DNA from: Hyphomicrobiales bacterium
GTDB taxonomy: Bacteria > Pseudomonadota > Alphaproteobacteria > Rhizobiales > Rhizobiaceae
Length of the DNA stretch: 64,000 nt
NCBI GenBank assembly: GCA_900466575.1
Contig: UBMP01000020.1
Location: 334,415 to 398,414 of the forward strand
Direction of reading: 5' to 3'
Made by a program: the position numbers and the translations under genes. The notes beneath the pieces were generated by a model, which did no database searches, was not told the origin of the DNA, and saw nothing but the letters and a program-made list of their open reading frames with translations. Below are positions 19,828-52,174 of this stretch, piece by piece (within the stretch, counting starts at the first letter, position 1; each line of letters begins with the position of its first letter).

Positions 19828-20610
19828 TTATTCCGGGAAAATCCCCGTCTCGGTGGCAACGCGCCGATAGGCCGCGCCCGCCGTAAAGCCGCCGTCGATG
19901 ACGAAGTCCTCGCCGGTGATGAAGCTGGAGGCGTCGGACGACAGGAAGAAGACGAGATCGGCGATCTCTTCCGGCTTGCCGGCGCGCTTGAGCGGCGTGA
20001 TGCCGATCATCGGCTTGAGATGCGGGCTCGATGCATTGAGACCCGTGACGACGAGGCCGGGGCAGACGGCGTTGACGCGAATGTTCTTCGGGGCCAGCTC
20101 CATCGCAGCACTCTTGGTCAGGCCGCGAAGCCCCCATTTGCTCGCCGTATAGGCCGGGTCGTAATGGCCGGAATAACCGCTGTTGGACGAGATGTTGACG
20201 ATCGCGCCGCCGCCGGTCTCTCCCATGAGCGGGCTCGCCGCCTGGATGCCGAGGAAGGAGCCGGTGAGGTTCACGCGCAGCACGCGTTCCCAGGCTTCGA
20301 GCGAGGTCGTCTCGACCAGCGTCCGGTTGATGATGCCGGCATTGTTGACCAGCACGTCGAGCCGGCCCTTCCAGGACTTCGCGAGATCGATAACGGCGGC
20401 CCAGCTGGCCGGGTCGGTCACGTCGAGGCGAATGAAGCGGGCTTGCTTGCCCTCTTTCGTCAGCTCCGCCGCCAGCGCCTCGCCTTCGTCCACGAGGACA
20501 TCGGCGATGATGACGGCAGCACCCTTCGAAGCGAAGAGGCGGATTTCCGCCTCGCCCTGCCCGCGCGCGCCGCCGGTGACGATGACAAGCTTGCCTGCAA
20601 AATCGCTCAT
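19828..20610 (-). CDS. SDR family oxidoreductase, last gene of the anthraniloyl-CoA operon
   Basis: A 260-aa SDR. The cofactor motif is VTGGARGQG, followed by NNAG, the catalytic Ser in NISSNSG and YTASKWG. The C-terminal region has GLVVTGLN and ITGEDFVIDGGF. The frame is open 15 codons upstream, but the ATG at 20610 starts MSDFAGKLVIVTGG, the standard position, 4 bp after the FAH gene stop. It would oxidise or reduce a hydroxy/keto intermediate. It is clearly different from the second SDR of the same operon (22779), so the two probably act at different steps. Confidence 0.87.
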   Translation of the reverse strand: MSDFAGKLVIVTGGARGQGEAEIRLFASKGAAVIIADVLVDEGEALAAELTKEGKQARFIRLDVTDPASWAAVIDLAKSWKGRLDVLVNNAGIINRTLVETTSLEAWERVLRVNLTGSFLGIQAASPLMGETGGGAIVNISSNSGYSGHYDPAYTASKWGLRGLTKSAAMELAPKNIRVNAVCPGLVVTGLNASSPHLKPMIGITPLKRAGKPEEIADLVFFLSSDASSFITGEDFVIDGGFTAGAAYRRVATETGIFPE

Positions 20611-20614
20611 GGCT

Positions 20615-21463
20615 TTAGTCCCTTGCTGCAATGGTGTGTTGCTTCTGGTCGCCAAGGCCCTCGATGCCGAGCGTCATGACTTGCCCCACCTTGAGGAAGA
20701 CCGGCTCGGGCTTGATGCCGAGGCCGACGCCGGGGGGCGTGCCGGTGGCGATGATGTCGCCGGGCTCCAGCGTCATGAACTGGCTGATATAGCTCACCAG
20801 ATGGCGGACGCCGAAGATCATGTTGGCGGTGGTCCCGGTCTGGCGGCGCACGCCGTCGACATCGAGCCAGAGCGCAAGGTTCTGCGGGTCCGGCACCTCG
20901 TCGCGCGTGACGAGATAGGGGCCGATGGGGCCGAATGTGTCGTGGCTCTTGCCCTTCGTCCACTGGCCGCCGCGCTCCGACTGGAAGGCGCGTTCGGAGA
21001 CATCGTTGACGACGCAATAGCCGGCCACATGGTCGAGCGCCTTGTCCTCGCTGACATATTTTGCCCGTGTGCCGATGACGATGCCGAGTTCGACTTCCCA
21101 GTCGGCCTTGACCGAGCCGCGCGGAATTTCGACGTCGTCATTGGGGCCGACGATGGCGCTGGTCGCCTTCATGAAGAGGATCGGCTCTTCCGGCGGTGCC
21201 TTGCCGGTTTCCTTGGCATGGTCGCTGTAGTTGAGGCCGACGCAGATGAATTTGCGCGTGCCGGCGACACAGGGACCGATCCTGCCGGGGGAAACCTCCG
21301 GCAGGGTCTTGGGGTCGATGGCGGCGATGCGCGAAAGGCCCGCATCGGAAAGGACGTCGCCGCCGAGATCGGCGACGACGCCCGACAGATCGCGGACCTT
21401 GCCGTCGTGATCGAGAAGGGCGGGCTTCTCGGCGCCCGCCGGGCCATGACGCAGGAGTTTCAT
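20615..21463 (-). CDS. Fumarylacetoacetate hydrolase (FAH) family protein
   Basis: A 282-aa member of the FAH fold, with the family sequence landmarks FICVGLNYSDHAKE, the metal-binding acidic region DWEVELGIVIG, and ERGGQWTKGKSHDTFGPIGP. Family members hydrolyse C-C bonds of ring-cleavage products (fumarylacetoacetate, fumarylpyruvate, acylpyruvates) or decarboxylate/isomerise them. Its ATG overlaps the cupin gene stop by one base. In an operon with an aromatic-CoA monooxygenase it is the expected last carbon-chain hydrolase. The substrate is not determined. Confidence 0.88.
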   Translation of the reverse strand: MKLLRHGPAGAEKPALLDHDGKVRDLSGVVADLGGDVLSDAGLSRIAAIDPKTLPEVSPGRIGPCVAGTRKFICVGLNYSDHAKETGKAPPEEPILFMKATSAIVGPNDDVEIPRGSVKADWEVELGIVIGTRAKYVSEDKALDHVAGYCVVNDVSERAFQSERGGQWTKGKSHDTFGPIGPYLVTRDEVPDPQNLALWLDVDGVRRQTGTTANMIFGVRHLVSYISQFMTLEPGDIIATGTPPGVGLGIKPEPVFLKVGQVMTLGIEGLGDQKQHTIAARD

Positions 21464-21888
21464 CAGGCGCGCCGGAAACCGACGAGGATCGAATCGTCCA
21501 CATCCGGCAGGTTGATGACGATATTGTCCGGCGTGCGCGTGGTCATCCAGACCAGCTCTTCCGTCGTTGACATGTTGACTTCGATATGCGGCCAGTAGGG
21601 CGGCACGAAGATGAAGTCGCCTTCTTCCATGTCGAGATATTCCTGCCAGTTCTCGCCGAAATAGATGCGCGCCTTGCCCTTCAGCACATAGCCGCCGGTT
21701 TCGGCTTCGCCATGGTGATGCGGATAGGAGCGGTAGCCCGGATCGTTGGAGACCTTGCCGAACCAGATTTTGGTGGCCGGCGTGTGCTGCGGGCCGACGC
21801 CCGAAATGCGAACGCAGCCGCCGGACTGTCCGGTATTGTTGTCTTCCTGGCCCTTGCGGGTGATGACGGGCATGACTTTATTGGACAT
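21463..21888 (-). CDS. Small single-cupin protein, candidate ring-cleavage dioxygenase
   Basis: A 141-aa cupin. Motif 1 reads YPHHHGEAETGGYVLKG, with clustered His and a downstream Glu. Motif 2 is EYLDMEEGDFIFVPPYWPH, with a terminal His. These are the usual metal ligands, so it should bind Fe or Mn. The longer frame to 21927 is less likely because AGGAGG lies 5 bases before the ATG at 21888. It is much shorter than bicupin gentisate dioxygenases. Its place between RidA and FAH genes makes it a candidate for aromatic-ring opening, but an isomerase or sensor role is equally possible from sequence alone. Confidence 0.8.
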   Translation of the reverse strand: MSNKVMPVITRKGQEDNNTGQSGGCVRISGVGPQHTPATKIWFGKVSNDPGYRSYPHHHGEAETGGYVLKGKARIYFGENWQEYLDMEEGDFIFVPPYWPHIEVNMSTTEELVWMTTRTPDNIVINLPDVDDSILVGFRRA

Positions 21889-21945
21889 GGTTTCCTCCTG
21901 GGATTTGAGTGGTTTATGCACTTCCACGGGGATGGAATGTTTTCC

Positions 21946-22344
21946 TCAATCCGGAACGACAGCCAGCGCCTGGATTTCGATCTTCGCGCGGTCTTCCATC
22001 AGGGCGACGACCTGAACGGCGGCCATCGGCGGGAAGTGGCGGCCGATGATCTCGCGATAGGCGGCGCCGATTTCCTTCATCCGCGACTTGTAGGCCTCAC
22101 GGTCGGTGAAATACCACGTCATCTGGATCAGATGTTCCGGCTTCGCGTTAGCCTTTTCCAGAACCTTGACGATGTTGATCAGCGTCTGGCGGACCTGGTC
22201 GACGAAATCGTCGGAGTGGAACAGGCAGTTCTCGTCCCAGCCGATCTGGCCGCCGACCTGCACGATGCGGCCGCGCGCGGAAATGCCGTTGGAATAGCCG
22301 ACCGGCTTTGCCCAGCCATCGGGTTGAATAATTTCATGCAGCAT
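21946..22344 (-). CDS. RidA/YjgF family enamine/imine deaminase
   Basis: A 132-aa RidA-superfamily protein. The family pattern is visible in RIVQVGGQIGWDENC, QVRQTLINIVKVL and the C-terminal EDRAKIEIQALAVV, where the Arg and Glu of the active site are present. RidA-family members hydrolyse enamines/imines; some act as 2-aminomuconate deaminases in aminoaromatic degradation. Its start overlaps the thioesterase end by 11 bp, so the two are translationally coupled. In an operon that should process an amino-aromatic, removing the amino group after ring cleavage is the most economical role (inference). Confidence 0.88.
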   Translation of the reverse strand: MLHEIIQPDGWAKPVGYSNGISARGRIVQVGGQIGWDENCLFHSDDFVDQVRQTLINIVKVLEKANAKPEHLIQMTWYFTDREAYKSRMKEIGAAYREIIGRHFPPMAAVQVVALMEDRAKIEIQALAVVPD

Positions 22345-22753
22345 CTTTTTGCTCCAGATAGCGGGTGAGGCCGGCGCGGATATCGTCCGGCCAGGCGCGG
22401 GATTTGTGATCTTCGGTGGAGGTCAGAACGATGCGCTGGCGCACCGTCCAGATCATGTCCTCGCCGACACGGACATCGGTTTCGAGGTCAAGCGACGAGC
22501 GGCCGATGGCGCGGACATGGACCGAGAAGTCCAGAACGTCGCCATAAACGGCCGGCTTGATGAATTGCAGATTCATGGTCACGGTCGGCAGGCCGAGACG
22601 GCGCTCGAACATGATCTCCTTCCAGGTGATGCCGAAGGAGGCAAACATCGCCTCGTTGACATCCACCAGATAGGACAGATAGGCCGGGTGATAGGCGATC
22701 CCGGTCAGATCGCAATCGCCGAAGCGCATCGGCTTGGATATCTTGAATGGCAT
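22334..22753 (-). CDS. Hotdog-fold acyl-CoA thioesterase (4HBT type)
   Basis: A 139-aa hotdog thioesterase, MPFKISKPMRFGDCDLTGIA onward. The typical 4-hydroxybenzoyl-CoA thioesterase stretch, GDCDLTGIAYHPAYLSYL, carries the catalytic Asp. The longer frame to 23020 overlaps the SDR gene and is rejected; AGGGGAGAG precedes the ATG at 22753. It is probably specific for an aromatic acyl-CoA, since it sits two genes after an anthraniloyl-CoA or salicylyl-CoA hydroxylase-type protein. It would release a free hydroxylated aromatic acid. Confidence 0.87.
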   Translation of the reverse strand: MPFKISKPMRFGDCDLTGIAYHPAYLSYLVDVNEAMFASFGITWKEIMFERRLGLPTVTMNLQFIKPAVYGDVLDFSVHVRAIGRSSLDLETDVRVGEDMIWTVRQRIVLTSTEDHKSRAWPDDIRAGLTRYLEQKDAA

Positions 22754-22778
22754 AAGCTCTCCCCTTCTGGATTTTGTC

Positions 22779-23564
22779 TCAACCCGCCAGCACTTCGCCG
22801 CCGGCGACCGCGATGGCCTGGCCGTTGATCGATTGCGCTGCGGGTCCGCAAAGCCAGGCGACCGTGTCGGCCACTTCGGTAGGATCAACCAGCCGCCCTT
22901 GCGGATTGTGTTTCGTAAACTCGGCCAAGGCGGCCTCCGCCGTCCGGCCGGTCTTGGCGATAATCGCCTCCACCGAGCGTGCGATGATCGGCGTATCGGT
23001 AAAGCCGGGGCAGACGGCATTCACCGTCACGCCGGTTCTGGCCAGTTCGAGCGCCAGCGCCCGCGTGAGCCCCACAACGCCATGCTTGGCGGCGCAATAG
23101 GCAGACACATAGGCATAGCCCGTGAGGCCTGCGGTCGAGGCAATGTTGACGATGCGCGCGCCCTTGCCGAAGGCTTTCAGGTCCGCCAGCGCTGCCTTCG
23201 TCACATTGAACACGCCCGTCAGATCGACCCCGATGACCTTTTCCCAAAGGTCGAGTTCGGTCTTTTCGAACGGCGCGGTCGGGGCCTCGCCGGCATTGTT
23301 GACGAGGATCGAGACCGGGCCGAACTTCGCCCGCGCCGCCTCGAAACCCCGCGCAATGGCTGCCGCATCGGTGACATCGACGCCCGAGACGGCAAACGTC
23401 CGCTCAAGGCCAAGCTCTTGCGCCAGTGCCTCCAGCGGCTCGGCGCGGCGGCCGGCCAGCGTCAGCAGCGCACCCTCGACCGACAGCCGCCGGGCGATGG
23501 CCGCCCCGATGCCGCTACCGGCACCGGTGACGAGAACGTGCCTGTTTTCGAGCGATCCGGCCAC
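22779..23564 (-). CDS. SDR family oxidoreductase (3-hydroxyacyl-CoA dehydrogenase-like)
   Basis: A 261-aa SDR, MAGSLENRHVLVTGAGSGIG onward. It has NNAG, the catalytic Ser in NIASTAGL and YCAAKHG. The start is set as the GTG at 23564, which has GAGG 5 bases upstream and follows the fusion-protein stop by 7 bp; the longer frame overlaps that gene. 3-hydroxyacyl-CoA or 3-hydroxybutyrate dehydrogenases have similar sequences. It probably works on a CoA-bound or ring-reduced intermediate produced by the monooxygenase/reductase upstream. Confidence 0.87.
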   Translation of the reverse strand: MAGSLENRHVLVTGAGSGIGAAIARRLSVEGALLTLAGRRAEPLEALAQELGLERTFAVSGVDVTDAAAIARGFEAARAKFGPVSILVNNAGEAPTAPFEKTELDLWEKVIGVDLTGVFNVTKAALADLKAFGKGARIVNIASTAGLTGYAYVSAYCAAKHGVVGLTRALALELARTGVTVNAVCPGFTDTPIIARSVEAIIAKTGRTAEAALAEFTKHNPQGRLVDPTEVADTVAWLCGPAAQSINGQAIAVAGGEVLAG

Positions 23565-23571
23565 GTCAGCC

Positions 23572-25887
23572 TCACTTGGCCGGCGTTGCAGCACGGGCGA
23601 GGTTCGCCTCGTACTGATACTTGCCCGACACATACTGCTTGGGCCACGCGACATTCTTCAGGCCGATCTTGGCCGCCTCGTGCAGCGCCCAAGCCGGGTC
23701 TGCCAGATGCGGACGGGCGACAGCGCAAAGGTCGGCGCGGCCGGCCGCGATGACGGAGTTGGCATGATCGGCTTCCGAGATCGCGCCCACCGCAATGGTC
23801 GGAACATGGATCTCGTTGCGGATCTTGTCGGAGAAGGGCGTCTGGAAGAGACGGCCATAGACCGGCTGTTCTTCCTTCCACACCTGACCCGACGAGCAGT
23901 CGATGAGGTCGGCACCGGCATCCTTGAACATCTGCGCGAAAATCGCGGCATCGTCCGGCGTGTTGCCGCCCTCGAACCAGTCATGGCAGGAGAGGCGCAC
24001 CGAGATCGGCTTGTCGGCCGGCCAGGCTTCGCGCACGGCGCGGAAGACTTCGAGCGGATAGCGCGCCCGGTTCTCGTGGCTGCCGCCATATTCGTCCTCG
24101 CGCCGGTTGGTCAGCGGCGACAGGAAGCTGGAGAAGAGATAACCGTGGGCGGCGTGGAATTCGAGCCAGTCGACGCCGGCCTCGACCGCACGCTTCGTGG
24201 CGGCGACGAAATCGGCTTTCACGCGGTCCATATCGGCCCGGTCCATCGCCTTCGGCACCTTGCTGTGCTTGAGGTAGGGCAGGGCGGAGGCCGAAAGCAG
24301 CGGCCAGTCGCCGCTTTCCAGTGGCTGGTCGATGCCTTCCCAGGCAACCTTCGTCGCGCCCTTGCGCCCGGCATGGCCGAGCTGCATGGCGACCTTGGCA
24401 TTGGAATTGCCATGGACGAAGGCGACAAGCCGCTTCCAGCCTTCCATCTGCTCATCGTTCCAGATGCCAAGGCAGCCGGGGGTGATGCGCGCATCGGGCG
24501 ACACGCAGGTCATTTCGGCGAACACGAGGCCCGCGCCGCCGAGCGCGCGGCTGCCGAGATGCACCATGTGGAAGTCGTCGAGCAGGCCGTCCTTGGCCGA
24601 ATACATGGCCATGGGCGAGACGACGATGCGGTTCGGCAGCGTCACGCCACGCACCTTGTAGGGCGTGAACATCGGCGGCAGGCAGCGCTCGCCCTCCTGG
24701 ACGTTCAGGCCCTGCTTGGCGGCAAACCAGCGCTCGTAGCCTTCCAGCCACGTCTTGTCGCGCAGGCGCAGGTTTTCGTGGCTGATGCGCTGCGAGCGGG
24801 TCAGCATGGAATACATGAACTGTTCCGGCTCCAGCGTGTCGGCATAACGATGGCCGACGACCTCGAACCACTCCATGGCATTGCGCGCCGCATTCTGGAT
24901 GCGGGCCACGTCGACGCGGCGGATCTCTTCGTAAGTCGCGAGAACGCCGGGGATTGCATCCTTGCCGTGGCCGGCAATGTTGAACTGGTTCGCAAGCTCG
25001 ATCGCATCGTCGATGGCAAGCTTGGTGCCCGAGCCGATGGCGAAATGGGCGGTATGGGCGGCGTCGCCCATCAGCACGACATGCGAATTGCCGTTGAAAT
25101 GGCTCCACTTGCCGCAGATGAGGCGGCTGAAATTCAGCCAGGCCGAGCCGCGCAGGTGGCGGGCGTTCGTCATCAGCGACGAACCTTCAAGGCTTTCGGC
25201 AAAGAGGTTTTCGCAGAACTTGATCGACTCGTCCTGAGACATCTCGCCCAGCTTGTGGGCCTGATAGGCCTCTTCGGTCGTCTCGACGATGAAGGTCGAG
25301 GTCTTGTCGTCGAACTTGTAGATATGCGCCTGGAACCAGCCATGATCCGTCTTGCGGAAATCGAAGGTGAAGGCATCGTAGAGCTTGTTGGTGCCGAGCC
25401 AGATATAGCGGTTCGGACGAACCACCATGTCGGGCTGGAAGATCTCCGCATATTTGTTGCGGATCTTGGAATTGAGACCGTCCGAGGCAATGACGAGATC
25501 GGCATCCGGGAAATCGAGGTCGCTGTCGACATCCGTCTCGAACTTCAGTTCGACGCCGAGCGCTTCGCAGCGCGCCTGCAGGATATTGAGCAACTTCTTG
25601 CGGCCGATGCCGACGAAGCCATGGCCGGTGGTGCGCTGGCGGGTGCCCTTGAAGAGGAGTTCGATATCGTCCCAATGGTTGAACGAGTCTTCGATCTCGG
25701 CCGCACTCTCCGGATCCCAGACGCGCATCGACTGCATGGTCTGGTCGGAGAAGACGACACCCCAGCCGAACGTGTCATAGGGTTTGTTGCGCTCCACCAC
25801 GGTAATGTCGTGGGCGGGATGAAGCTTCTTCATCAGAAGTCCGAAATAGAGGCCAGCCGGACCTCCGCCGATGCAAACGATGCGCAT
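23572..25887 (-). CDS. Fused aromatic-CoA monooxygenase / OYE-like reductase (anthraniloyl-CoA monooxygenase or salicylyl-CoA 5-hydroxylase type)
   Basis: A 771-aa two-domain flavoprotein. Residues ~1-390 form a FAD aromatic hydroxylase: [18 protein letters not shown] at the N-terminus and the FAD motif [19 protein letters not shown]. Residues ~400-771 form an Old-Yellow-Enzyme-type NADH:flavin domain, with [23 protein letters not shown] and the active-site [21 protein letters not shown]. This architecture is that of 2-aminobenzoyl-CoA monooxygenase/reductase (EC 1.14.13.40), also annotated as bifunctional salicylyl-CoA 5-hydroxylase. It hydroxylates and may reduce the ring of an aromatic CoA thioester. 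It heads the seven-gene operon 25887-19828. Anthraniloyl-CoA is favoured by the isatin hydrolase in the window. Confidence 0.9.
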
Positions 25888-26784: not shown

Positions 26785-27903
26785 TCAAGCAGCCTTCGCC
26801 GCTTTCGTCACAGCCCGCCGAATGCCGGCGCTTTCCAGCATCGGCAGCACGGTGTCGCGGAAGTAGGGGAACTCTTCCGCATAATCGACGAAGGAAAGCG
26901 TCGTGCCGTTGAAGCCGGCCTTGTGGAGGGCAATCAGCCCCTCCGCCACCTGTTCCGGCGTGCCGACCAGCGGGAAGCCGCCGTGTCCTGCCGCCATGCG
27001 GTCGCGGATGAGGGCGAGCAGATCGTGCGGGAAGGAATGCGCGTGGGCAAATTGCAGGCGCACGAGATTGTCGACCGCTGCCCAGTCGGCATTGTCCTGG
27101 CCGAAATGCTGCAGATAGTCCTTCGCTTCCTTTTCCGTCGGACGGCAGACGACATGGCTGAAGGTCAGCACGCCGACCTTCTTGCCGACATCGCGCGCCT
27201 GCTGCTTCAGCGCCGCGATTTCCTCGCCCGAGCGGGAGAGATCGATCGCGGGGGTGAAGAGGAAGTCCGCATTCTTGACCGCAAAGGCGCGGCCCTCGCC
27301 GGAGCCGGCAGCATTCAGGATCGGCACCTTGCGCGAGGGGCGCGGGTCGCCGAGGATGCCCTTCAGCTTGAAGAAGGCGCCGTCCCAGTCGAAGGTCTCG
27401 GTGCGCGTCCACAGCGCCTTGATGACGTCGAACCATTCCTGCGCATAGGCATAGCGCTCCTCATGGCCGGCGGGCAGGTCGAGGCCCAGCGCCTTGTATT
27501 CCGGCTCGTTCCAGCCGGCGACGATGTTGAGGCCGATGCGGCCGCGGCTGATCTGGTCGATGGTGGCGATCTGCTTGGCCACAACCGCCGGATGGTTGGC
27601 CGCCGTGTGGATCGTGGCAAACACATTGATGTTCTGGGTGCTGGCCAGCAGCCCCGCCGCCCAGGTCATGGTTTCCAGCACGCCGCCATGGAAATTGGTC
27701 TCGCCGCCATAGCCGATCCAGCGGGCGATCGGCAGCATGAAGTCGATGCCGGCATCATCGAGCAGGCGGGCGAGCTTGAGATTGTTGTCCCAGGAATTGA
27801 CCCAGCGCTCGGGTACTTTGGTGACGGACATGCCGCCGGAGCAGTTGGACGCGAAGGTTCCGAGCACGAATTGGCCTTCAGCGAACATCGAGTTCTCTGT
27901 CAT
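26785..27903 (-). CDS. LLM-class (luciferase-like) flavin-dependent monooxygenase, RutA-like
   Basis: A 372-aa bacterial-luciferase-fold monooxygenase. It has the family landmarks LARLLDDAGIDFMLPIARW, NINVFATIHTA, and SRGRIGLNIVAGWNEPEY, and is most like the RutA pyrimidine-ring monooxygenases and alkanesulfonate monooxygenases. RutA-type enzymes use reduced FMN and oxygen to cleave an amide (lactam) C-N bond. With a flavin reductase downstream it forms a two-component system. In an indole-degradation context the oxindole/isatin lactam is a plausible target (inference). GGGGAA precedes the ATG, and a 25-bp palindromic site lies upstream. Confidence 0.87.
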   Translation of the reverse strand: MTENSMFAEGQFVLGTFASNCSGGMSVTKVPERWVNSWDNNLKLARLLDDAGIDFMLPIARWIGYGGETNFHGGVLETMTWAAGLLASTQNINVFATIHTAANHPAVVAKQIATIDQISRGRIGLNIVAGWNEPEYKALGLDLPAGHEERYAYAQEWFDVIKALWTRTETFDWDGAFFKLKGILGDPRPSRKVPILNAAGSGEGRAFAVKNADFLFTPAIDLSRSGEEIAALKQQARDVGKKVGVLTFSHVVCRPTEKEAKDYLQHFGQDNADWAAVDNLVRLQFAHAHSFPHDLLALIRDRMAAGHGGFPLVGTPEQVAEGLIALHKAGFNGTTLSFVDYAEEFPYFRDTVLPMLESAGIRRAVTKAAKAA

Positions 27904-27965: not shown

Positions 27966-28079
27966 GTCAACGGTCGAAATTCGCAAATCGCTATTTTTCC
28001 GGGCGGGCGGAAAAGCGGTGTTTGAGCCCGCCTCGCGGTGCGGCTAGTGTCGGGGGCGAGTCGGGTTGAGGAGCGGGAC

Positions 28080-28649
28080 ATGCAGGACGAGAACAAGGAA
28101 GCCGGCAAGGCAGTCGATGGGCAAAAGGACAGCGGCCTCGACCGCCACTGGCATCTGGCGCGCACACCTGTCGAAATGGATGTCGCCGAGCTGGAATATG
28201 CGCTCATGCGCGCCTTCGAAGCCTTTGGTCGCTGGCAGACGGAATGCCTCTCGACCGTTCTCGACCTCACCGCGAGCGGCCCGGAAAACGCCATGCTCCA
28301 CATCATCCGCATGAACGACCGGCCGAAGACGCTGAAGGACATCGCGCGTCTCTCCAACCGCGAGGACATTCCCAACATGCAATACAGCCTGCGCAAGCTG
28401 ATCGGCGCGGGCCTCGTCGAACGCACCGGGAGCGGCCGCTCCGGCGTCACCTACACCGTGACGGAAGCCGGGCGCGACGTCACCGACCGCTACGCCGATG
28501 TGCGCGCCTCGCTACTGGTCAAGGCCGTGCAATCGGTACCGAACCTCGGCAAGCGGCTGGAGGACGCGACGGAAACGCTGGATCTGCTGACGGGGATTTA
28601 CGAGCAGGTGGCCCGGACGGCCGCGACGCATAGAAGGTTGCCGCGGTGA
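28080..28649 (+). CDS. MarR-type winged-helix transcriptional regulator
   Basis: A 189-aa winged-helix protein. The core is NAMLHIIRMNDRPKTLKDIARLSNREDIPNMQYSLRKL, a MarR-like recognition helix, then the wing GLVERTGSGRSGVTYTVTEAG. The first 14 codons of the longer frame are dropped because GAGGAG stands 6 bases before the ATG at 28080. It is divergent from the LLM monooxygenase and adjoins an inverted repeat. That suggests it controls itself and the minus-strand degradation genes, responding to an aromatic ligand. The ligand is unknown. No terminator is obvious before the DUF1275 gene. Confidence 0.85.
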   Translation: MQDENKEAGKAVDGQKDSGLDRHWHLARTPVEMDVAELEYALMRAFEAFGRWQTECLSTVLDLTASGPENAMLHIIRMNDRPKTLKDIARLSNREDIPNMQYSLRKLIGAGLVERTGSGRSGVTYTVTEAGRDVTDRYADVRASLLVKAVQSVPNLGKRLEDATETLDLLTGIYEQVARTAATHRRLPR

Positions 28650-33688: not shown

Positions 33689-33689
33689 A

Positions 33690-42260: not shown

Positions 42261-43811
42261 ATGAACGTTCACGTTGATAATGCCTTCGCCGCTCTCTCCC
42301 ACGACAAGCCGCTCACGCTCGCCATCCTCGCCATGGGCGGCCAGGGCGGCGGGGTTCTCGCCGACTGGATCGTCGATCTCGCTGAATCCGAAGGCTGGGT
42401 CGCGCAGACCAGTTCCGTGCCGGGCGTTGCCCAGCGCACCGGCGCGACGATCTATTATCTCGAACTCATCAAGGCCCGCGACGGCGCGCATCCGGTTCTG
42501 GCGCTGATGCCGACGCCCGGCGATGTCGATGTCGTGCTCGCCGCCGAGCTGATGGAAGCCGGCCGCTCGGTGCTGCGCGGTCTCGTCACGCCAGACAAGA
42601 CGATGCTCATCGCCTCCACCCACCGCTCCTTCGCGGTCGGCGAAAAGGAAAAGCCCGGCGACGGCATCGGCAACCCGACCATCGTGGTCGATGCCACCGA
42701 TTTTGCCGCGAAGAAGACCATCGCCTTCGACATGGATACGCTGGCGACGAAGAACGGCAGCGTCATTTCCGCCTCCATGTTCGGTTCGCTCGCGGCCTCC
42801 GGCGCGCTGCCCTTCTCCAAGGAAGCCTTCGAGGCGACGGTGCGCAAGGGCGGCAAGGGCGTGGAAGCCAGCCTTCGCGCCTTCAACGCGGCCTATGACC
42901 GTGTGCTGCGCGGCGGCAATGACAAGGTTTCCGCCACGCCGACCAAGACCTTCTCCGAAATCCCGGCATCCGCCGGCCACCCGGTGCTGGACAAGCTGCT
43001 TACCCGCATCCGCAAGGAATTCCCGGTCGGCATCCAGCCGATGCTTTATGCCGGCGTGAAGAAGCTCACCGACTTCCAGGACCCGGCTTATGCCGACGAA
43101 TATCTGAGCGAAGTCGGCAAGCTTCATGCCGCCGACAAGGCAAACGGCGGGGAGGAAAAGGATTTCGCCTTCACCGCACAGGCCGCCAAATATGTCGCCA
43201 TCGCCATGGCCTATGACGACGTGATCCGCGTTGCCGATCTAAAGACGCGCGGCACCCGCTTCGACCGCGTGAAGAAGGAAGTCGGCGTCAAGGCCGACCA
43301 GATTCTCTACACGACCGAATACATGCATCCGCGCATGGAAGAGGTCTGCGGCACGCTGCCGAAGGGCATCGGAAGTTTCATCGAGAACCGTCCTGCCTTG
43401 TTCAACTGGCTGAACCGCCGCATCGACAAGGGCCGCCGCGTCAAGACCGGCACGCTCTTCTGGTTCACCGGCCTCTATTTCATCGCGTCGCTCCGCCGCT
43501 TCCGCCGCGGCAGTCTCCGCCATTCCATCGAAACAGCGCATCGCAACAGCTGGATCAGGACCGCGCTCAACGTCCTGCCGCAGAACTATGACCTCGCCGT
43601 CGAGGTTCTGGGCAATCGCCGTCTGGTCAAGGGCTATTCGGACACTCATGTCCGCGGCCTCTCCAAGTTCGACCGCGTCATGTCGGCCCTGCCGATGCTG
43701 ACGGGTCGCGAGGATGGCGCGGCGTGGATGCGCCGTTTGCGTCAAGCCGCGCTCCTGGACGAGGGCGGAATTGCGCTCGATGGTGCGTTGAAGACGGTCG
43801 CGACGCTCTGA
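42261..43811 (+). CDS. iorB: Indolepyruvate ferredoxin oxidoreductase, beta (gamma-domain) subunit
   Basis: A 516-aa protein. Its N-terminal ~200 residues are the gamma/beta domain, LTLAILAMGGQGGGVLADWI onward, with VPGVAQRTGATIYY. The C-terminal ~300 residues form the extra domain often found in proteobacterial IorB. It forms the complex with the alpha subunit. AGAGGGG precedes the ATG at 42261; the longer frame to 42243 overlaps the alpha stop and is not needed. GGGGCGCG (43823-43830) and CGCGCCCC (43863-43870) could form a weak 3' stem after the stop. Confidence 0.88.
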   Translation: MNVHVDNAFAALSHDKPLTLAILAMGGQGGGVLADWIVDLAESEGWVAQTSSVPGVAQRTGATIYYLELIKARDGAHPVLALMPTPGDVDVVLAAELMEAGRSVLRGLVTPDKTMLIASTHRSFAVGEKEKPGDGIGNPTIVVDATDFAAKKTIAFDMDTLATKNGSVISASMFGSLAASGALPFSKEAFEATVRKGGKGVEASLRAFNAAYDRVLRGGNDKVSATPTKTFSEIPASAGHPVLDKLLTRIRKEFPVGIQPMLYAGVKKLTDFQDPAYADEYLSEVGKLHAADKANGGEEKDFAFTAQAAKYVAIAMAYDDVIRVADLKTRGTRFDRVKKEVGVKADQILYTTEYMHPRMEEVCGTLPKGIGSFIENRPALFNWLNRRIDKGRRVKTGTLFWFTGLYFIASLRRFRRGSLRHSIETAHRNSWIRTALNVLPQNYDLAVEVLGNRRLVKGYSDTHVRGLSKFDRVMSALPMLTGREDGAAWMRRLRQAALLDEGGIALDGALKTVATL

Positions 43812-47072: not shown

Positions 47073-47594
47073 TCATAGTTCGTTCTTGCGGACGTTGCGC
47101 AGGATCTTGTGCAACGTGTTGAGAAAGGCGCGGTATTCGTCCTCGTCGATATCGCGGAACATCTGGCGCAGCCCGTCATACATGACCGGCCAGACCTCGT
47201 TGAACACGGCGCGTCCCTCTTCGGTAATGGCGACATCGCGCACCCGCAGGTCGTCGGCACGCGGGGTACGGCTGATCAGCCCCTGCTCTTCCAGCGAATC
47301 CACCGTGCGGCTCATGGTCGACTGTTCGGTGACGCCGAGAACGGAAAGCTCATTGATCGTCAGCGACGACGAGACGGAGAGCACGGCCAGCGCCCGCATC
47401 TTGGCGGTGGTGATGTCGCGGGCGCGAAGCTCTTCGGAAAGATTTGCGTTCCACCGCGCCATGACGCGGTTCATGATATAGGGCGCGAAATGGTTCAGGC
47501 CCATCTCGCCCAGGCTCGGCATGCGGCCATCCTCGCTGCCGGGTGGGCCGAGAACATCCCCGGAAAAGCCGCTCTCCATCCAGTCTTCTCCCAT
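47073..47594 (-). CDS. MarR family transcriptional regulator
   Basis: A 173-aa MarR protein. The DNA-binding region is TINELSVLGVTEQSTMSRTVDSLEEQGLI, with the wing RTPRADDLRVRDVAITEEG. ATGs at 47594 and 47579 both have acceptable ribosome-binding sites. It is read in the same direction as, and 76 bp downstream of, the FAD oxidoreductase gene 47671-49263. It is a candidate regulator of the ATGCAAAT-type operators seen before isatin hydrolase, FAD oxidoreductase and IOR genes. A phenolic or indolic acid is the usual sort of ligand. Confidence 0.87.
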   Translation of the reverse strand: MGEDWMESGFSGDVLGPPGSEDGRMPSLGEMGLNHFAPYIMNRVMARWNANLSEELRARDITTAKMRALAVLSVSSSLTINELSVLGVTEQSTMSRTVDSLEEQGLISRTPRADDLRVRDVAITEEGRAVFNEVWPVMYDGLRQMFRDIDEDEYRAFLNTLHKILRNVRKNEL

Positions 47595-47670: not shown

Positions 47671-49263
47671 TCACTTCAGAGAAGATGCGAGCAGGAAGCC
47701 GGATCCGCCACCAAGGCCCGGACCAGGATGGGTGGACGCTCCGATATGGTAGAGCCCCGGCACATGCGTCATGTGGTTATTCGGTCTCTTGAATGGGCGC
47801 CAGAGGAAAAACTGGTCTAGTCCACAGAAGCCGCCGTAAGGATCACCACCGACGAGGTTCATGTTCATGACTTCGAGATCGGCCGGCGAATAGGCGCGCC
47901 GCGCAATCACCGCCTCGTCGAAATTCTCGATATGGTGGCGCAGCATCGCCTCCACGCGATCGGCAAAAGCCTCACGCAGCGTCTCGGTCCAGCGCCCATC
48001 CGCCGGGCAATCGAGCGCGCCCGCCGCATCGCCCTTGATGAAGCGTGGCGTGTCGGGCAGCTGTAGCCAGAGGATCGACTGGCCCTCCGGCGCGCGGCTC
48101 GGATCGAAGGAGGTGGGCTGGCCGACGCAGACGGTGGGCTCGGCCGGCAACAGACCGCGCTCCGCCTCGTTGGCTGAACGTGATACGCCGTCAAGGCCCG
48201 GCGTCAGGTGCAACAGCGCGACCTTGCCGAGAGCGTCCCCCGCCTTCCAGCGCGGGGCCGCCTTCAGGGCGTAGTGGATCTGCATGTTTCCCTTGCCATA
48301 GCGATAGGCCTTCAGCCCGTCCTTGACATAGTCGGGCAGGGCGGCCGCGCCGCTCTTTAAAAGCCGCTTGTAGATCTGGTCGGGCGTCATCGAGGCAATC
48401 ACGCCGGCACCGGCCTTGAAACTGCGGCCATCGGCGAGGCGCACACCGGTGGCCTTGCCGCCCGGCCCGAGGATCACTTCATCGACGTCGGCGCCGGTCA
48501 CGATCTCTCCGCCCTGATCGCTGATGAGCTTTTCAAACGCCTTCAGCAGGTTGACCGCGCCACCCTTGACGACGGGGCAGCCCGCCAGCTCGATGGCAAA
48601 GCCGATGACCTTGACCATTTCCGCCGAATAGCTGCTTTCAGGACCCAGACCGCAATGCAGCGTCCAAGGCGCCCACAGCGCCTTCATCTCGTCGGATTGA
48701 TAGGTGGTTTCCAGGTAGGAGCGCGCTGGTGCCAGCGCTTCGCCGAAGAAGGACGCCAAGCCCTTCAGCCCGCGCGACCACGCTTCCTTGGCAACCAGCT
48801 TCGCCGTGGCCATGGACCAGAGATTTCCGCCCAGCAGTCCGAAGACGAAACCCGCATTGCCGCCGAAGCGGTTCATCTCGCGGTCGAAGGCCTGGCCGTC
48901 GCCGGCGGCGAGACCGTCGAAATTCGCGATATTCTCCGCCCGATTCATGGAGAGGATTGCGTGGGACCCGTCGGGTCGCAAAACGCCGGTCGGCGTTGCC
49001 GAATGGCAGAACTCCAACCCTCGCGCCTCCAGATCCTTGCCGAGTGCCGCAAAGGCCGGCGAGGTTATGAAGAGAACCATGGTGGTCGCCATCACATCGT
49101 GGACAAAACCCGGTGTGGTGATCTCTTCCGTGCGCAGGCAGCCGCCAATCTGCGAATTGCGCTCAAGAAGCAGAACCTTCTTGCCCTTCTTGCCCAGAAC
49201 GGCCGCCGCCACCAGCGCATTGATGCCGCTGCCGACGATAATATAGTCCGGATTGGTGGTCAT
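47671..49263 (-). CDS. FAD-dependent oxidoreductase, phytoene-desaturase/PYROXD2-like (first of two)
   Basis: A 530-aa flavoprotein. The N-terminal FAD motif is DYIIVGSGINALVAAAVLGKKG, followed by ERNSQIGGCLRTEE. The C-terminal FAD contact reads GLYHIGASTHPGPGLGGGSG. Related proteins are annotated as phytoene desaturase-like or PYROXD2-like and dehydrogenate C-C or C-N bonds of varied substrates. Its gene and isatin hydrolase are co-directional, separated by the second mosaic repeat, and a paralog lies divergently at 50603. Oxidation of an indole or oxindole derivative is inferred only from this context. Confidence 0.87.
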   Translation of the reverse strand: MTTNPDYIIVGSGINALVAAAVLGKKGKKVLLLERNSQIGGCLRTEEITTPGFVHDVMATTMVLFITSPAFAALGKDLEARGLEFCHSATPTGVLRPDGSHAILSMNRAENIANFDGLAAGDGQAFDREMNRFGGNAGFVFGLLGGNLWSMATAKLVAKEAWSRGLKGLASFFGEALAPARSYLETTYQSDEMKALWAPWTLHCGLGPESSYSAEMVKVIGFAIELAGCPVVKGGAVNLLKAFEKLISDQGGEIVTGADVDEVILGPGGKATGVRLADGRSFKAGAGVIASMTPDQIYKRLLKSGAAALPDYVKDGLKAYRYGKGNMQIHYALKAAPRWKAGDALGKVALLHLTPGLDGVSRSANEAERGLLPAEPTVCVGQPTSFDPSRAPEGQSILWLQLPDTPRFIKGDAAGALDCPADGRWTETLREAFADRVEAMLRHHIENFDEAVIARRAYSPADLEVMNMNLVGGDPYGGFCGLDQFFLWRPFKRPNNHMTHVPGLYHIGASTHPGPGLGGGSGFLLASSLK

Positions 49264-49530: not shown

Positions 49531-50316
49531 TCACGCAATCAGCGCCAGCGCGCGGATCGGCGAGCCCGTGCCCTTGACGAACTTCAGCGGTGCGGCAATC
49601 AGGATCGCTCCCTTCGGCGGCAACTGATCGAGGTTCGACAGGCTGGCGAGGCCGTATTTGTTGGCCTTGTGCATGAGGTTATGTGCCGGGAAGGGCGGGT
49701 TCATGCCGCCGGCCATGCCGGCATCGGTGCCGATGGTTTCCTGGCCCCAGCCGATAATGCCCTTGGAGAGAAGGTATTCAATAGCCTCTGCCGTCGGGCC
49801 GGGCGTGTGCGGACCGGTCTCGTCGGCATTGAGGAAGGTTTCGGATGAGCCGTTGCGCTTGTACCAGTCGGTGCGCATGACGACCCAGGTGCCGGCTTCG
49901 ATCTCGCCATGCTCGGCTTCCCATTCCTTGATGCTCTCAACCGTCAGCAGATAATCGTTGTCGGCAGCGGCTTCCTTCGAACGGTCGATGACATTGACCG
50001 GGGCGACGAAGTTCTGCGGCGGGATCGTGTCAGTCGTGTTGCCGGGATGATCCTTGCCGGTGACCCAGTGACAGGGCGCATCGAAATGCGTGCCGGTATG
50101 TTCGCCCAGTTCCAGCCAATTCCAGGCCCAGAACGGACCGTTCTCGTCATAGGCTGAAATCTCGTGAACCTTGACGTTCGGCGTGTTCTTGCCGAACTGC
50201 GGCGGCAGATAGAGAACCGGCGTTTCCGGACCGAGCGGTGCGGTGAGATCGACGACCTTGACCTTGCCCGTCAGCAGTTGGGCGGCGAGTTGGGAAAGTG
50301 AGCTTGTATCCGACAT
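49531..50316 (-). CDS. Isatin hydrolase (cyclase/kynurenine-formamidase-like metal hydrolase)
   Basis: A 261-aa member of the cyclase family. The metal-binding signature HTGTHFDAPCHW is at residues 73-84, with His73, His77 and Asp79 as the expected Mn ligands. Other landmarks are VVDLTAPLGPETPVLYLPPQ at the N-terminus and GIIGWGQETIGTDAG at ~186-200. Its pattern fits isatin hydrolases of Alphaproteobacteria better than kynurenine formamidases. The enzyme hydrolyses isatin to isatinate (2-aminophenylglyoxylate), an intermediate from indole or indoleacetate on the way to anthranilate. It is divergent from the FAD oxidoreductase at 50603. Family is near certain, isatin specificity probable. Confidence 0.82.
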   Translation of the reverse strand: MSDTSSLSQLAAQLLTGKVKVVDLTAPLGPETPVLYLPPQFGKNTPNVKVHEISAYDENGPFWAWNWLELGEHTGTHFDAPCHWVTGKDHPGNTTDTIPPQNFVAPVNVIDRSKEAAADNDYLLTVESIKEWEAEHGEIEAGTWVVMRTDWYKRNGSSETFLNADETGPHTPGPTAEAIEYLLSKGIIGWGQETIGTDAGMAGGMNPPFPAHNLMHKANKYGLASLSNLDQLPPKGAILIAAPLKFVKGTGSPIRALALIA

Positions 50317-50395: not shown

Positions 50396-50571
50396 AATAT
50401 GTAAATGCAAGTAATTTTCCGGTGAACTTTTCCCATTGCCTTACCGCCTTGCCTGGCTTGCAATGTGGCGCAGCTACCTATCCGGCGGGAGTCGAGGCGA
50501 TGATGGGCATCGCTTGCAATCTCCCGAATTATTTTAAGCTTGATGCATTTTTGAGAAGATGTATGCATACA
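50396..50571. promoter_or_regulatory. Divergent promoter region with ATGCA-type operators
   Basis: The 286-bp gap between isatin hydrolase and the divergent FAD oxidoreductase holds two elements. TATGTAAATGCA is at 50398-50409, one mismatch from TATGCAAATGCA in the IOR operator. TGTATGCATACA, a perfect 12-bp palindrome, is at 50560-50571, 31 bp before the ATG at 50603. A third TGATGCATTTTT lies at 50541-50552. Shared regulation of the three transcripts is implied. Confidence 0.45.
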
Positions 50572-50602
50572 GAAATAAATCCGAAGAAATCGGGGGAACG
50601 AG

Positions 50603-52174
50603 ATGTCTGAATTCGACGCTGTCATCCTGGGCGCAGGTCACAATGGTCTTGCCGCTGCCGTGCATCTGGCGGCCAAGGGCTGGAAGGTTGCGGTCGTCGA
50701 GGCCAAGGCGAGCGCTGGGGGTGCGGTGAAGACGCAGGAGCTCATCGAGCCGGGCTTCCGCCATGATCTGGCCGCCATGAACCTCTCCATGTTCGCGGGC
50801 TCTGCGTTCCATCAGGCCTATGCAGGGGAGCTGGCCGCGCAGGGGCTGAAATTCGTGCCTGCGCCGAATTGCTTCGCCAGCGTCTTCCCGGACGGTACCC
50901 ATCTCGGTATCGGCACGGATGCCGCAGCCAATAAGGCGGGGATTGCAGCGCTCTCGACGAAGGACGCGGAAAGCTTCGCCGCCATGTCCGCCGAGTTCGG
51001 CACGATGGCGCCCCATCTCTTCGGCCTGCTGGGCAATCCGATGCCGTCCATGGGAAGCATCAAGACGGTCTGGAAGGCATGGCGCGCCGGCGGCGTGCCG
51101 CTGCTCACCGACCTTCTCCGCCTCCTCCTCTCCTCGCCGCGTGGCTTCCTCGACCGGCATTTTGACAATGAAAAGCTGAAGGCGATGATGGCCGCGTGGG
51201 GGCTGCATCTCGACTTCCCGCCCGACGCTGCCGGCGGTGCGCTCTTTCCCTATCTTGAGACGATGACCAACCAGGCCTTCGGCATGGTGATCGGTGAGGG
51301 CGGGGCCGATGCGATCGTCAAGGCTATGACTGGTCTGCTGAAGGCCAGGGGCGGGGAACTCTTCTTCAGCTCCCCGGTCGCCTCGGTCGAGGTTTCCGAC
51401 GGGCGCGCCAGATCGGTGACGCTCGGGGATGGGCGCAAACTGACGGCGAAGCGTGCAGTCATTTCCAATATTCACCCCAAGCTGCTGTTTGACGGCATGG
51501 TTTCTGGCAGTTCCTTGCCGCGCCGTTTCGCGGATGGCCTCAGGACCTATCGCGCTGGACCCGGCGCCATGATGATCCATCTGACGCTGGATGGGCTACC
51601 CGACTGGTCGGCATCGCCGAACCTTAAATCCTACGCCTATGTGCATATCGCGCCGAACCTTGCCATGATGAACAGGGTCTATGACGAGGCCGTATCCGGC
51701 CTGCTGCCGCGCGAGCCTGCCCTCGTCGTCGGCCAGCCCACGACGCTCGATCCTACCCGCGCGCCGGCGGGGAAACACGTGCTGTGGGTTCAGGTCCGTG
51801 TTCTACCCGCCGAGATCAGGGGCGATGCGGCTGGCGAGATCACCGCGACGGATTGGCCCTCGGTGAAAGAGGCCTATGCCGATCGTGCTCTCTCGATCAT
51901 CGAAAGCTACGCCCCCGGCTTCCGCTCGAAAATCCGCGGCCGCGCCGTCTGGTCGCCGCTCGATCTTCAGGCCGAAAACCCGAATCTGATCGGGGGCGAC
52001 AGCCTTTCCGGCTCGCATCATCTCGACCAGAATTTCCTCTTTCGTCCGGTTGCCGGCTACTCGCGCTACAAGAGCCCGGTGGAAGGTCTCTATATGTGCG
52101 GCGCTGCCACCTGGCCTGGCGCGGGCACGGGGGCAGGCTCCGGCTATATGCTCGCGAAGATGCTCGCAGGCTAG
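50603..52174 (+). CDS. FAD-dependent oxidoreductase, phytoene-desaturase/PYROXD2-like (second of two)
   Basis: A 523-aa flavoprotein paralogous to the one at 47671. The FAD motif is DAVILGAGHNGLAAAVHLAAKG, followed by EAKASAGGAVKTQE. The C-terminal FAD contact is GLYMCGAATWPGAGTGAGSG. GGGGGAA precedes the ATG. The two paralogs flank the isatin hydrolase gene and would be co-expressed from the divergent promoter. They may form a heteromer or act on successive C-H oxidations. No experimentally defined substrate is known to me. Confidence 0.87.
   Translation: MSEFDAVILGAGHNGLAAAVHLAAKGWKVAVVEAKASAGGAVKTQELIEPGFRHDLAAMNLSMFAGSAFHQAYAGELAAQGLKFVPAPNCFASVFPDGTHLGIGTDAAANKAGIAALSTKDAESFAAMSAEFGTMAPHLFGLLGNPMPSMGSIKTVWKAWRAGGVPLLTDLLRLLLSSPRGFLDRHFDNEKLKAMMAAWGLHLDFPPDAAGGALFPYLETMTNQAFGMVIGEGGADAIVKAMTGLLKARGGELFFSSPVASVEVSDGRARSVTLGDGRKLTAKRAVISNIHPKLLFDGMVSGSSLPRRFADGLRTYRAGPGAMMIHLTLDGLPDWSASPNLKSYAYVHIAPNLAMMNRVYDEAVSGLLPREPALVVGQPTTLDPTRAPAGKHVLWVQVRVLPAEIRGDAAGEITATDWPSVKEAYADRALSIIESYAPGFRSKIRGRAVWSPLDLQAENPNLIGGDSLSGSHHLDQNFLFRPVAGYSRYKSPVEGLYMCGAATWPGAGTGAGSGYMLAKMLAG

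What the first reader, a model, noticed from the sequence alone, without database searches (positions are those of the whole stretch)
19828..52174. Composite indole/indolepyruvate to anthranilate catabolic island
Indolepyruvate oxidoreductase, StyA-like indole monooxygenase with SDR and reductase, isatin hydrolase, RutA-like monooxygenase and anthraniloyl-CoA-type hydroxylase occur within 32 kb with dedicated importer, regulators and chemoreceptor. None of the classical iac or Rieske-type iad oxygenases are visible, so this may be a third kind of bacterial indole or auxin degradation locus.
Basis: partly seen in the sequence, partly recalled or inferred. Interest (0 to 1): 0.85.

Follow-up and report, generated by a model that had tools for sequence, protein, structure and literature searches.

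The report
Ligase-free indole-to-anthraniloyl-CoA island
This rhizobial genome carries a conserved gene island predicted to break indole down through isatin, in which an enzyme labelled for indolepyruvate likely turns isatinate straight into anthraniloyl-CoA, taking the place of the anthranilate-CoA ligase of which this genome has no close relative.

Summary
The genes are there and belong together, but the key enzyme is mislabelled. IMO (29584-30822) is an indole-monooxygenase-type flavoprotein. IHa (49531-50316) is 69.6% identical to solved isatin hydrolase B and keeps its signature motifs. SalA (23572-25887) is the anthraniloyl-CoA monooxygenase/reductase type. IorAB misses the curated cut-offs for indolepyruvate oxidoreductase.

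In 398 genomes of the phylum its IorA clade occurs in 25; 23 of these have isatin hydrolase (2 of the other 373 do) and 25 of 25 have SalA. The upper module varies: indole monooxygenase in 6 of 25, a Rieske oxygenase of iad type in 5. SalA loci of genomes without this IorA clade carry an orthologous CoA ligase in 37 of 40 cases; SalA loci linked to IorA or isatin hydrolase in 3 of 15. The best match to such a ligase in the window genome is 35% identical.

Best reading: indole -> dioxindole -> isatin -> isatinate, then IorAB predicted to make anthraniloyl-CoA directly, feeding SalA. The upper half is known iif/ind plus isatin-hydrolase chemistry; the isatinate:ferredoxin oxidoreductase (CoA-acylating) step would be new and would also assign IadAB of auxin loci. 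No activity was measured. An indolepyruvate or auxin entry is not supported here.

The parts
29584..30822 (-). Indole monooxygenase (IifC/IndA type), group E flavoprotein
   Evidence: PDB 7z4x 652 bits against 125 for styrene monooxygenase 3ihm; StyA equivalog cut-off not met, 216 of 550
31694..32215 (-). Flavin reductase, predicted partner of the indole monooxygenase
   Evidence: PF01613; beside IMO in relatives
30863..31648 (-). SDR, IifB-like; predicted indole-2,3-dihydrodiol -> 3-hydroxyindolin-2-one
   Evidence: PF13561; beside IMO in relatives; role by analogy with IifB (PMC6221969 passages)
47671..49263 (-). CrtI1-like FAD oxidoreductase; predicted dioxindole -> isatin
   Evidence: Pfam; in 20 of 23 IMO loci with IHa and 0 of 23 with the IifA candidate but no IHa
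49531..50316 (-). Isatin hydrolase (IHB type); predicted isatin -> isatinate
   Evidence: 69.6% identical over 260 positions to 4j0n; metal motif, WxW pocket and GLAS signature present
50603..52174 (+). CrtI2-like FAD oxidoreductase, paralogue of CrtI1; role not assigned
   Evidence: Pfam; 37% identical to CrtI1; linked to IHa, CrtI1 and the importer in other genomes
40081..42246 (+). IorA-like alpha subunit; predicted isatinate:ferredoxin oxidoreductase (CoA-anthraniloylating)
   Evidence: PF02775; TPP motif at residue 487, and 12 of its 13 Cys invariant in 48 clade members and 7 paralogues; co-occurrence
42243..43811 (+). IorB-like beta subunit with DUF6537, frame overlapping iorA by 4 bases
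   Evidence: PF01558 + PF20169; NF006179 707 bits over cut-off 348
23572..25887 (-). SalA: anthraniloyl-CoA monooxygenase/reductase-type fusion (FAD hydroxylase + OYE)
   Evidence: NF006101 1357 bits over 1078; stands beside CoA ligases of one clade in other genomes
22779..23654 (-). SDR2 of the lower operon
   Evidence: PF00106; beside SalA elsewhere
22334..22759 (-). 4HBT thioesterase (start likely at codon 88 of the listed frame)
   Evidence: PF13279 matches residues 99-217 of frame 22334-23020
21946..22344 (-). RidA; predicted to hydrolyse the enamine made by SalA
   Evidence: PF01042; RidA in 31 of 40 and 14 of 21 SalA stretches
21463..21927 (-). Small cupin of the lower operon
   Evidence: PF07883; 88% identical in the R. 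leguminosarum lower operon
20615..21463 (-). FAH-family hydrolase of the lower operon
   Evidence: PF01557
19828..20655 (-). SDR1 of the lower operon
   Evidence: PF13561
25995..26684 (-). Second flavin reductase, predicted partner of the LLM monooxygenase
   Evidence: PF01613 from residue 71 on
26785..27903 (-). LLM flavin monooxygenase, predicted to act below anthraniloyl-CoA; substrate not assigned
   Evidence: PF00296; SfnG and RutA cut-offs not met; in 14 of 81 stretches, 80 loci plus window
28038..28649 (+). MarR-type regulator divergent from the LLM gene
   Evidence: PF13463; travels with LLM
32382..33371 (+). AraC-type regulator divergent from the IMO operon
   Evidence: PF14525/PF12833
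34008..39834 (-). VOC protein, DppFDCB-type ABC importer and SBP5 binding protein; substrate not assigned
   Evidence: travels with CrtI2-IHa-CrtI1-IorAB in other genomes
47073..47594 (-). MarRb, often directly upstream of iorA elsewhere
   Evidence: PF01047
52286..52771 (+). MarRc, relative of the MarR in SalA operons
   Evidence: PF01047
40051..40066 (.). Perfect palindrome 15-30 bases before iorA; candidate operator only
   Evidence: not found at the same place in other loci

Best explanation
The island encodes a likely complete route from indole to anthraniloyl-CoA in which IorAB is predicted to act on isatinate, not on indolepyruvate, and so would replace the anthranilate-CoA ligase, of which the genome has no close relative. 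Steps: the indole monooxygenase with its flavin reductase would epoxidise indole; the SDR would yield 3-hydroxyindolin-2-one (dioxindole); a CrtI-like FAD enzyme is predicted to oxidise dioxindole to isatin; isatin hydrolase would open isatin to isatinate (2-aminophenylglyoxylate, an aryl 2-oxo acid); IorAB would decarboxylate it with TPP and CoA to anthraniloyl-CoA, CO2 and reduced ferredoxin; SalA would hydroxylate and reduce the ring; RidA, SDRs, thioesterase, cupin, FAH hydrolase and LLM monooxygenase would finish. Shown here: gene content, relatedness, motifs, co-occurrence and absence of a close ligase. Inferred: every substrate.
For: IMO and IHa are close relatives of solved proteins and IHa keeps the isatin-hydrolase motifs (motifs read in PMC6117287 passages). 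In 398 genomes the IorA clade (25) and IHa (25) overlap in 23 (Fisher 7e-33; by genus 14/2/2/195, 5e-18), with SalA in 25 of 25 against 47 of 373. Seven stretches around IorA paralogues had none of IHa, SalA, IMO, CrtI1, IadD; the paralogues form the other side of a branch with SH-aLRT 100. The upper module changes while IorA, IHa and SalA stay. On plasmids 40 of 50 IorA records hold IHa, 32 within 5 kb. Ligase test: 37 of 40 against 3 of 15, p 3.8e-7; collapsed to genera 24 of 27 against 2 of 9, p 0.0004. Window genome: best match to a SalA-neighbour ligase 35%, to the IifA candidate 39%. The same lower operon in R. leguminosarum p3 has an 80% related ligase and no IorAB in the stretch shown. 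Preprint PMC12633357 (passages): Variovorax strains overexpressing iadC-K2 strongly accumulate C8H7NO3, the formula of isatinate, shown not to be N-formylanthranilate; iadA/B, the IorAB homologues by PMC9613470 legends, are not in that nine-gene list.
Against: No activity is measured. In the same Variovorax work iadC-K2 restores anthranilate without iadAB, so isatinate can leave by another way, and overexpression alone could cause the build-up. Three linked SalA loci keep an orthologous ligase (L224, L225, L235), and G171, G265 and G225 have one elsewhere (8 genomes searched). Alloyangia, which has the whole set, and Tsukamurella also carry a ligase of that clade. G262 and G019 have IorA but no IHa; G327 and G237 have IHa but no IorA. 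L027 and L062 have IorA with the IifA candidate and no IHa in their stretches. None of the proteins scanned in the island is a ferredoxin. The 62% threshold for the IorA clade was set after seeing a gap at 57-62%; the tree supports it. Genomes are not independent: with any AMP-binding protein counted, genera give 25 of 27 against 4 of 9, p 0.006.
Confidence: 0.72

Rival explanations
1. IorAB is a true arylpyruvate (indolepyruvate) oxidoreductase and the island feeds tryptophan-derived indolepyruvate or indoleacetate into the isatin branch.
For: Database labels; the family name of IorB.
Against: Equivalog cut-offs not met; no aminotransferase among the island proteins scanned; IorA tracks isatin hydrolase and SalA across different upper modules; no IadD relative in the genome.
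Confidence: 0.1
2. The island yields free anthranilate from isatinate by another or a spontaneous reaction; IorAB disposes of a side product such as a keto acid, and an unrelated ligase makes anthraniloyl-CoA.
For: Variovorax iadC-K2 makes anthranilate without iadAB (PMC12633357 passages); 16 PF00501 proteins in the genome.
Against: The best match in the genome to a SalA-neighbour ligase (L182) is 35%; ligase absence goes with IorA/IHa linkage.
Confidence: 0.13
3. Several independent catabolic clusters merely lie side by side (indole, an oxidised indole taken up by the importer, and anthraniloyl-CoA), without one through-pathway.
For: CrtI2-IHa-CrtI1-MarR-IorAB-importer units occur without IMO; IMO and lower operons occur alone; ParDE and other genes lie inside the island.
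Against: IMO, IHa, CrtI1, IorA and SalA stand together in 5 of the 80 loci (L030, L046, L065, L073, L077) and in Alloyangia, in different orders; stretches reach only 10 kb from IMO, so this is a lower bound.
Confidence: 0.05

Closest known systems
iif/ind indole degradation cluster (Acinetobacter O153, Cupriavidus SHE)
   Same: Indole monooxygenase, flavin reductase and SDR
   Different: Those end with IifA, a cofactor-independent oxygenase giving anthranilate (PMC6221969 passages). My IifA candidate (a DLH-family protein of Halomonas-type loci) is in 25 and IHa in 23 of 80 loci, both in 2; window genome best match 39%
Providencia rettgeri GS cluster (PMC9871250, passages)
   Same: SDR, indole monooxygenase, flavin reductase, PF04199 protein, oxidoreductase GS-O, AraC; isatin detected
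   Different: Authors propose N-formylanthranilate and catechol and leave GS-O without function. In P. burhodogranariea (L080) an IorA lies about 5 kb beyond the CrtI gene
iad auxin degradation locus (Variovorax, Bradyrhizobium)
   Same: Isatin branch, IadI (annotated kynurenine formamidase), IorAB homologues (IadAB), MarR
   Different: Starts with Rieske IadCDE on indoleacetate; no relative of IadD in this genome. IadAB has no assigned role in the passages read
Isatin hydrolase IHB of Labrenzia aggregata
   Same: 69.6% identity, signature motifs kept
   Different: Genomic partners of the solved protein were not examined here
2-aminobenzoyl-CoA pathway of Azoarcus evansii and Arthrobacter Rue61a
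   Same: Monooxygenase/reductase fusion on anthraniloyl-CoA
   Different: Rue61a uses an ATP-dependent anthranilate-CoA ligase (PMC3534580 passages); here no close ligase relative, and cupin/FAH/SDR/LLM genes in place of enoyl-CoA hydratase and acyl-CoA dehydrogenase
Phenylglyoxylate oxidoreductase (CoA-benzoylating) of anaerobes
   Same: Works like it: aryl 2-oxo acid + CoA -> aroyl-CoA (recalled, no call)
   Different: No sequence comparison was made; membership not claimed

Membership tests
Isatin hydrolase | Metal motif HxG[T/A]HxDxPxH | tested here: met
   HTGTHFDAPCH at residue 73
Isatin hydrolase | WxW/FxW aromatic pocket and GLAS/GLQC signature | tested here: met
   WAWNW at 63, GLAS at 222; Phe63 of LaIHB is Trp here
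Isatin hydrolase | Mn-dependent hydrolysis of isatin | not testable with these tools
   needs an enzyme assay
Indole monooxygenase (IifC/IndA) | Closer to indole than to styrene monooxygenases | tested here: met
   652 against 125 bits; that 7z4x is the Variovorax indole monooxygenase is recalled
iif indole pathway | Cofactor-independent oxygenase IifA | tested here: inconclusive
   Best match of the IifA candidate in the genome 39%, against 59-79% in G304, G356 and G379; the published IifA sequence was not at hand
Indolepyruvate ferredoxin oxidoreductase (IOR) | Curated equivalog cut-offs TIGR03336/TIGR03334 | tested here: not met
   268.2 of 650.9 and 34.5 of 205.8 bits
2-oxoacid:acceptor oxidoreductase superfamily | TPP motif, POR domain, conserved cysteines | tested here: met
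   PF02775, PF01558; GDG...N at 487 and 12 invariant Cys
Anthraniloyl-CoA monooxygenase/reductase | FAD hydroxylase fused to an OYE domain | tested here: met
   PF01494 + PF00724; NF006101 over cut-off. That model is named for salicylyl-CoA
Anthraniloyl-CoA monooxygenase/reductase | Activity on anthraniloyl-CoA | not testable with these tools
   needs an enzyme assay
iad auxin locus | Rieske oxygenase IadD | tested here: not met
   no match at 1e-60 in G000; query was the Azospirillum protein L111:19819-21132, taken as IadD by family and place, not compared with Variovorax IadD
iac auxin locus | IacA flavoprotein | not tested
   no search made
RutA | Equivalog cut-off TIGR03612 | tested here: not met
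   161 of 498.3 bits
Kynurenine formamidase | Equivalog cut-off TIGR03035 | tested here: not met
   33 of 223.05 bits

The most novel reading that the evidence does not exclude
IorAB is a new enzyme, isatinate:ferredoxin oxidoreductase (CoA-anthraniloylating): the shared hinge of bacterial indole and auxin degradation that turns isatinate into anthraniloyl-CoA without ATP, bypasses free anthranilate, and makes sense of the unassigned iorA/iorB genes of iad loci and of many 'indolepyruvate oxidoreductases' of aerobes.
Probability: 0.68. Interest if true: 0.82.

Novelty: new variant of a known kind. Interest (0 to 1): 0.7.

Why it matters
A 2018 review (PMC6221969, passages) lists as open whether isatin is a true intermediate of aerobic indole degradation and which cluster handles anthranilate. 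This island gives one testable answer: isatin is a true intermediate where CrtI and isatin hydrolase stand in place of IifA, and anthraniloyl-CoA is reached without free anthranilate. It would re-name an enzyme clade mislabelled for indolepyruvate (25 of 398 genomes), assign IadAB of auxin-degrading root bacteria, and predict which genomes use isatinate. In ten paper searches I saw no listing or passage that describes such an enzyme; the library holds open-licence papers only.

Tried and rejected
Styrene monooxygenase reading of IMO: rejected by scores. Salicylate pathway for SalA: disfavoured, since SalA stretches often carry RidA (31 of 40 and 14 of 21) and ligases of one clade; not excluded by assay. 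Kynurenine formamidase for IHa: rejected by motif and cut-off. A shared operator for all operons: palindromes were listed, one perfect one before iorA, but none was conserved at orthologous places, so no regulon is claimed. tRNAs and Rfam matches at the gathering threshold: none. IorA in phages: weak matches only, at most 27.4% identity. Solved structures for IorA, IorB, CrtI1: none useful. No structure prediction or fold search was run. The broad protein search listed 120 of 8000 hits, all close relatives, and added nothing. Recalled and from no call: that 7z4x is the Variovorax indole monooxygenase; the phenylglyoxylate oxidoreductase analogy.
Full report
Where it is. The window is bases 334415-398414 of contig 28 of a 5.14 Mb genome, 99.99% complete in 44 contigs. 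Its indole monooxygenase is 98-99% identical in 'Rhizobiales bacterium AFS022961' and Rhizobium sp. C1, so this is most likely a Rhizobiaceae genome.

Observation. Additions: two CrtI-like FAD oxidoreductases, a second flavin reductase beside the LLM gene, RidA, a thioesterase, a small cupin and an FAH hydrolase. Curated cut-offs bear on four names: IorA and IorB are not within the indolepyruvate equivalogs, the LLM protein is neither RutA nor SfnG, IMO is not StyA, and IHa is not a kynurenine formamidase.

Upper module. IMO matches 7z4x with 652 bits and styrene monooxygenase 3ihm with 125. IHa matches isatin hydrolase B (4j0n) with 420 bits at 69.6% identity over 260 positions, with the three metal ligands kept and the signature motifs HxGTHxDxPxH, WxW and GLAS (motifs as stated in PMC6117287 passages). 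Of 50 distinct IHa relatives in the fetched loci all have the metal motif and 43 have GLAS or GLQC; those without are six actinobacterial ones and L243.

Two fates of dioxindole. The scan with IMO found 191 relatives, of which 80 loci were kept. A dienelactone-hydrolase-family gene upstream of the SDR in Halomonas-type loci is, by position, my candidate for IifA (the published IifA sequence was not at hand). It occurs in 25 of 80 loci, IHa in 23, both in 2 (Rhodococcus L025, L026); the overlap is less than chance (p 0.004). CrtI1 (38% identity or more) is in 20 of the 23 loci with IHa and in 0 of the 23 with the candidate but no IHa. Loci reach at most 10 kb to each side, and 16 of the 80 showed none of the five markers. 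The window genome's best match to the candidate is 39% identical, against 59-79% in three other genomes searched alongside it. This suggests that CrtI1 plus isatin hydrolase is the alternative to IifA, and that CrtI1 oxidises dioxindole to isatin. In Providencia rettgeri the genes for SDR, IMO, reductase and cyclase were expressed and isatin was detected (PMC9871250 passages); the authors assigned the cyclase to N-formylanthranilate and left the oxidoreductase GS-O beside it without function.

IorAB follows isatin hydrolase. A scan of 398 genomes drawn from the phylum found IorA in 29; 25 have a copy at 62% identity or more, 4 only copies at 57% or less. IHa at E<=1e-50 is in 25, SalA at E<=1e-100 in 72, IMO at E<=1e-100 in 11. 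The high-identity IorA set overlaps IHa in 23 (IorA only: G262, G019; IHa only: G327, G237), SalA in 25 and IMO in 6. The 4 paralogue-only genomes have no IHa, and two of them have SalA. In the 31 genomes searched further, CrtI1 is in 14, all in the IorA set, and the IadD relative in 6, of which 5 are in the set. A tree of 55 IorA sequences separates 48 of the clade from 7 paralogues with SH-aLRT 100; the 20-kb stretches around the 7 paralogues hold none of the markers. Among named plasmids, 40 of 50 IorA records also carry IHa, 32 within 5 kb; the 10 without are four Variovorax, three Hydrogenophaga, two Delftia and one uncultured-bacterium record. In 22 of the 80 IMO loci IorA is present, and IHa with it in 17. 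What stays is isatin hydrolase, IorAB and SalA. The product of isatin hydrolase, isatinate, is an aryl 2-oxo acid and so a fitting substrate for this superfamily (established chemistry of 2-oxoacid oxidoreductases; inference for this enzyme).

The ligase test. In the known pathway anthranilate is activated by an anthranilate-CoA ligase before 2-aminobenzoyl-CoA monooxygenase/reductase acts (PMC3534580 passages). If IorAB makes anthraniloyl-CoA directly, the ligase should be dispensable. I took about 20 kb around SalA in 40 of the 47 SalA-bearing genomes without the IorA clade (two of the 40 have an IorA paralogue) and in 21 of the 25 with it, the window included. Left out were G196, G315, G316, G324, G394, G167 and G327 on the one side, and G051, G200, G262, G019 on the other; G327 was read later (L242) and has a relative of the ligase at 64%. 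A profile made from seven AMP-binding proteins of annotated loci was run over all frames, and hits were grouped at 45% identity. A ligase of the main group was found in 37 of 40 loci without the clade; the other three were L193 (another AMP-binding protein), L215 and L219. Of the 21 stretches with it, 15 have IorA or IHa in the same stretch; the ligase is in 3 of them (L224, L225, L235); L223 and L238 hold AMP-binding proteins of other groups. p is 3.8e-7, and 0.0004 by genus, 24 of 27 against 2 of 9, a genus counted as having the ligase if any locus has it. Of the six stretches without linkage, four have the ligase. In L230-L234 (unnamed genus g3 of the window's family) the SalA operon is the usual one minus the ligase. 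A search of 8 genomes with one such ligase (L182) gave 35% as the best match in the window genome, 33% in G296, 31% in G376; G171 (74%), G225 (53%) and G265 (69%, with one in-frame stop) have a closer one elsewhere. R. leguminosarum p3 has the window's own lower operon (SalA 85%, RidA 91%, cupin 88%, FAH 78%) with a ligase 80% identical to that group and no IorAB in the stretch: the two feeds look interchangeable. Against this, Alloyangia and Tsukamurella have both IorAB and a ligase of the group.

Published data that bear on it. In Variovorax, iadA and iadB are iorA and iorB homologues (PMC9613470 figure legends). The nine-gene segment iadC-K2, which by its gene list leaves them out, restores anthranilate; strains overexpressing it strongly accumulate C8H7NO3, which MS/MS showed not to be N-formylanthranilate (PMC12633357 passages). 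The build-up fits a missing isatinate-consuming enzyme; the anthranilate shows that another exit exists, and overexpression alone might cause the build-up. All three facts stand.

Lower pathway. Three lower sets were seen near IorAB or SalA: the window type (SDR, thioesterase, RidA, small cupin, FAH, SDR, LLM), one with enoyl-CoA hydratase, acyl-CoA dehydrogenase and RidA, and one with long cupin, FAH, nitrilase and an Asp/Glu-racemase-family protein that resembles ring cleavage of a 5-hydroxyanthranilate. 5-Hydroxyanthraniloyl-CoA is a known product of the monooxygenase/reductase under NADH limitation (PMC3534580 passages). The steps of the window type are not assigned here beyond RidA as a likely enamine hydrolase.

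Verdict. Known parts, newly joined: a variant of indole degradation through isatin whose likely novelty is an isatinate-specific IorAB. Confidence 0.72 in the whole reading. Papers were seen as search listings and passages only.

Noticed in passing
window 33380-33989: ParDE-type toxin-antitoxin pair inside the island between the AraC gene and the importer operon.
   Followed up: partly
window 26652-26727 and 49356-49462: Repeated G+C-rich hairpin CCTCCCC...GGGGAGG: 7 matches at 5 sites in the window, no shuffle of 100 reached 7; looks like a small dispersed palindromic element.
   Followed up: no
G265:C67:30152-31771: Relative (69%) of the anthranilate-CoA-ligase-like proteins with one in-frame stop in a genome that has IorAB, IHa and SalA; may be a decaying ligase.
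   Followed up: no
L015 and L016: In MAG Rhizobium LANL01E the IMO cluster reads as a mirrored duplicate on one contig; real or an assembly artefact.
   Followed up: no
L024-L029, L044, L068 and others: Second indole-monooxygenase copy directly after the first in Actinobacteria and Variovorax.
   Followed up: no
L120-L124, L126, L127, L250: Importer-CrtI2-IHa-CrtI1-MarR-IorAB units without IMO: their entry substrate, perhaps an oxidised plant indole, is open.
   Followed up: partly
L242 (G327): IHa directly beside SalA with a ligase relative (64%) and no IorA: the reverse arrangement.
   Followed up: partly
window 1-17813 and 52887-60376: Flanks look like uptake and oxidation clusters: solute-binding protein and ABC genes, ROK regulator, GMC oxidoreductases, a CoA-transferase-like protein at 2011-3582; only some of these genes were scanned.
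   Followed up: no
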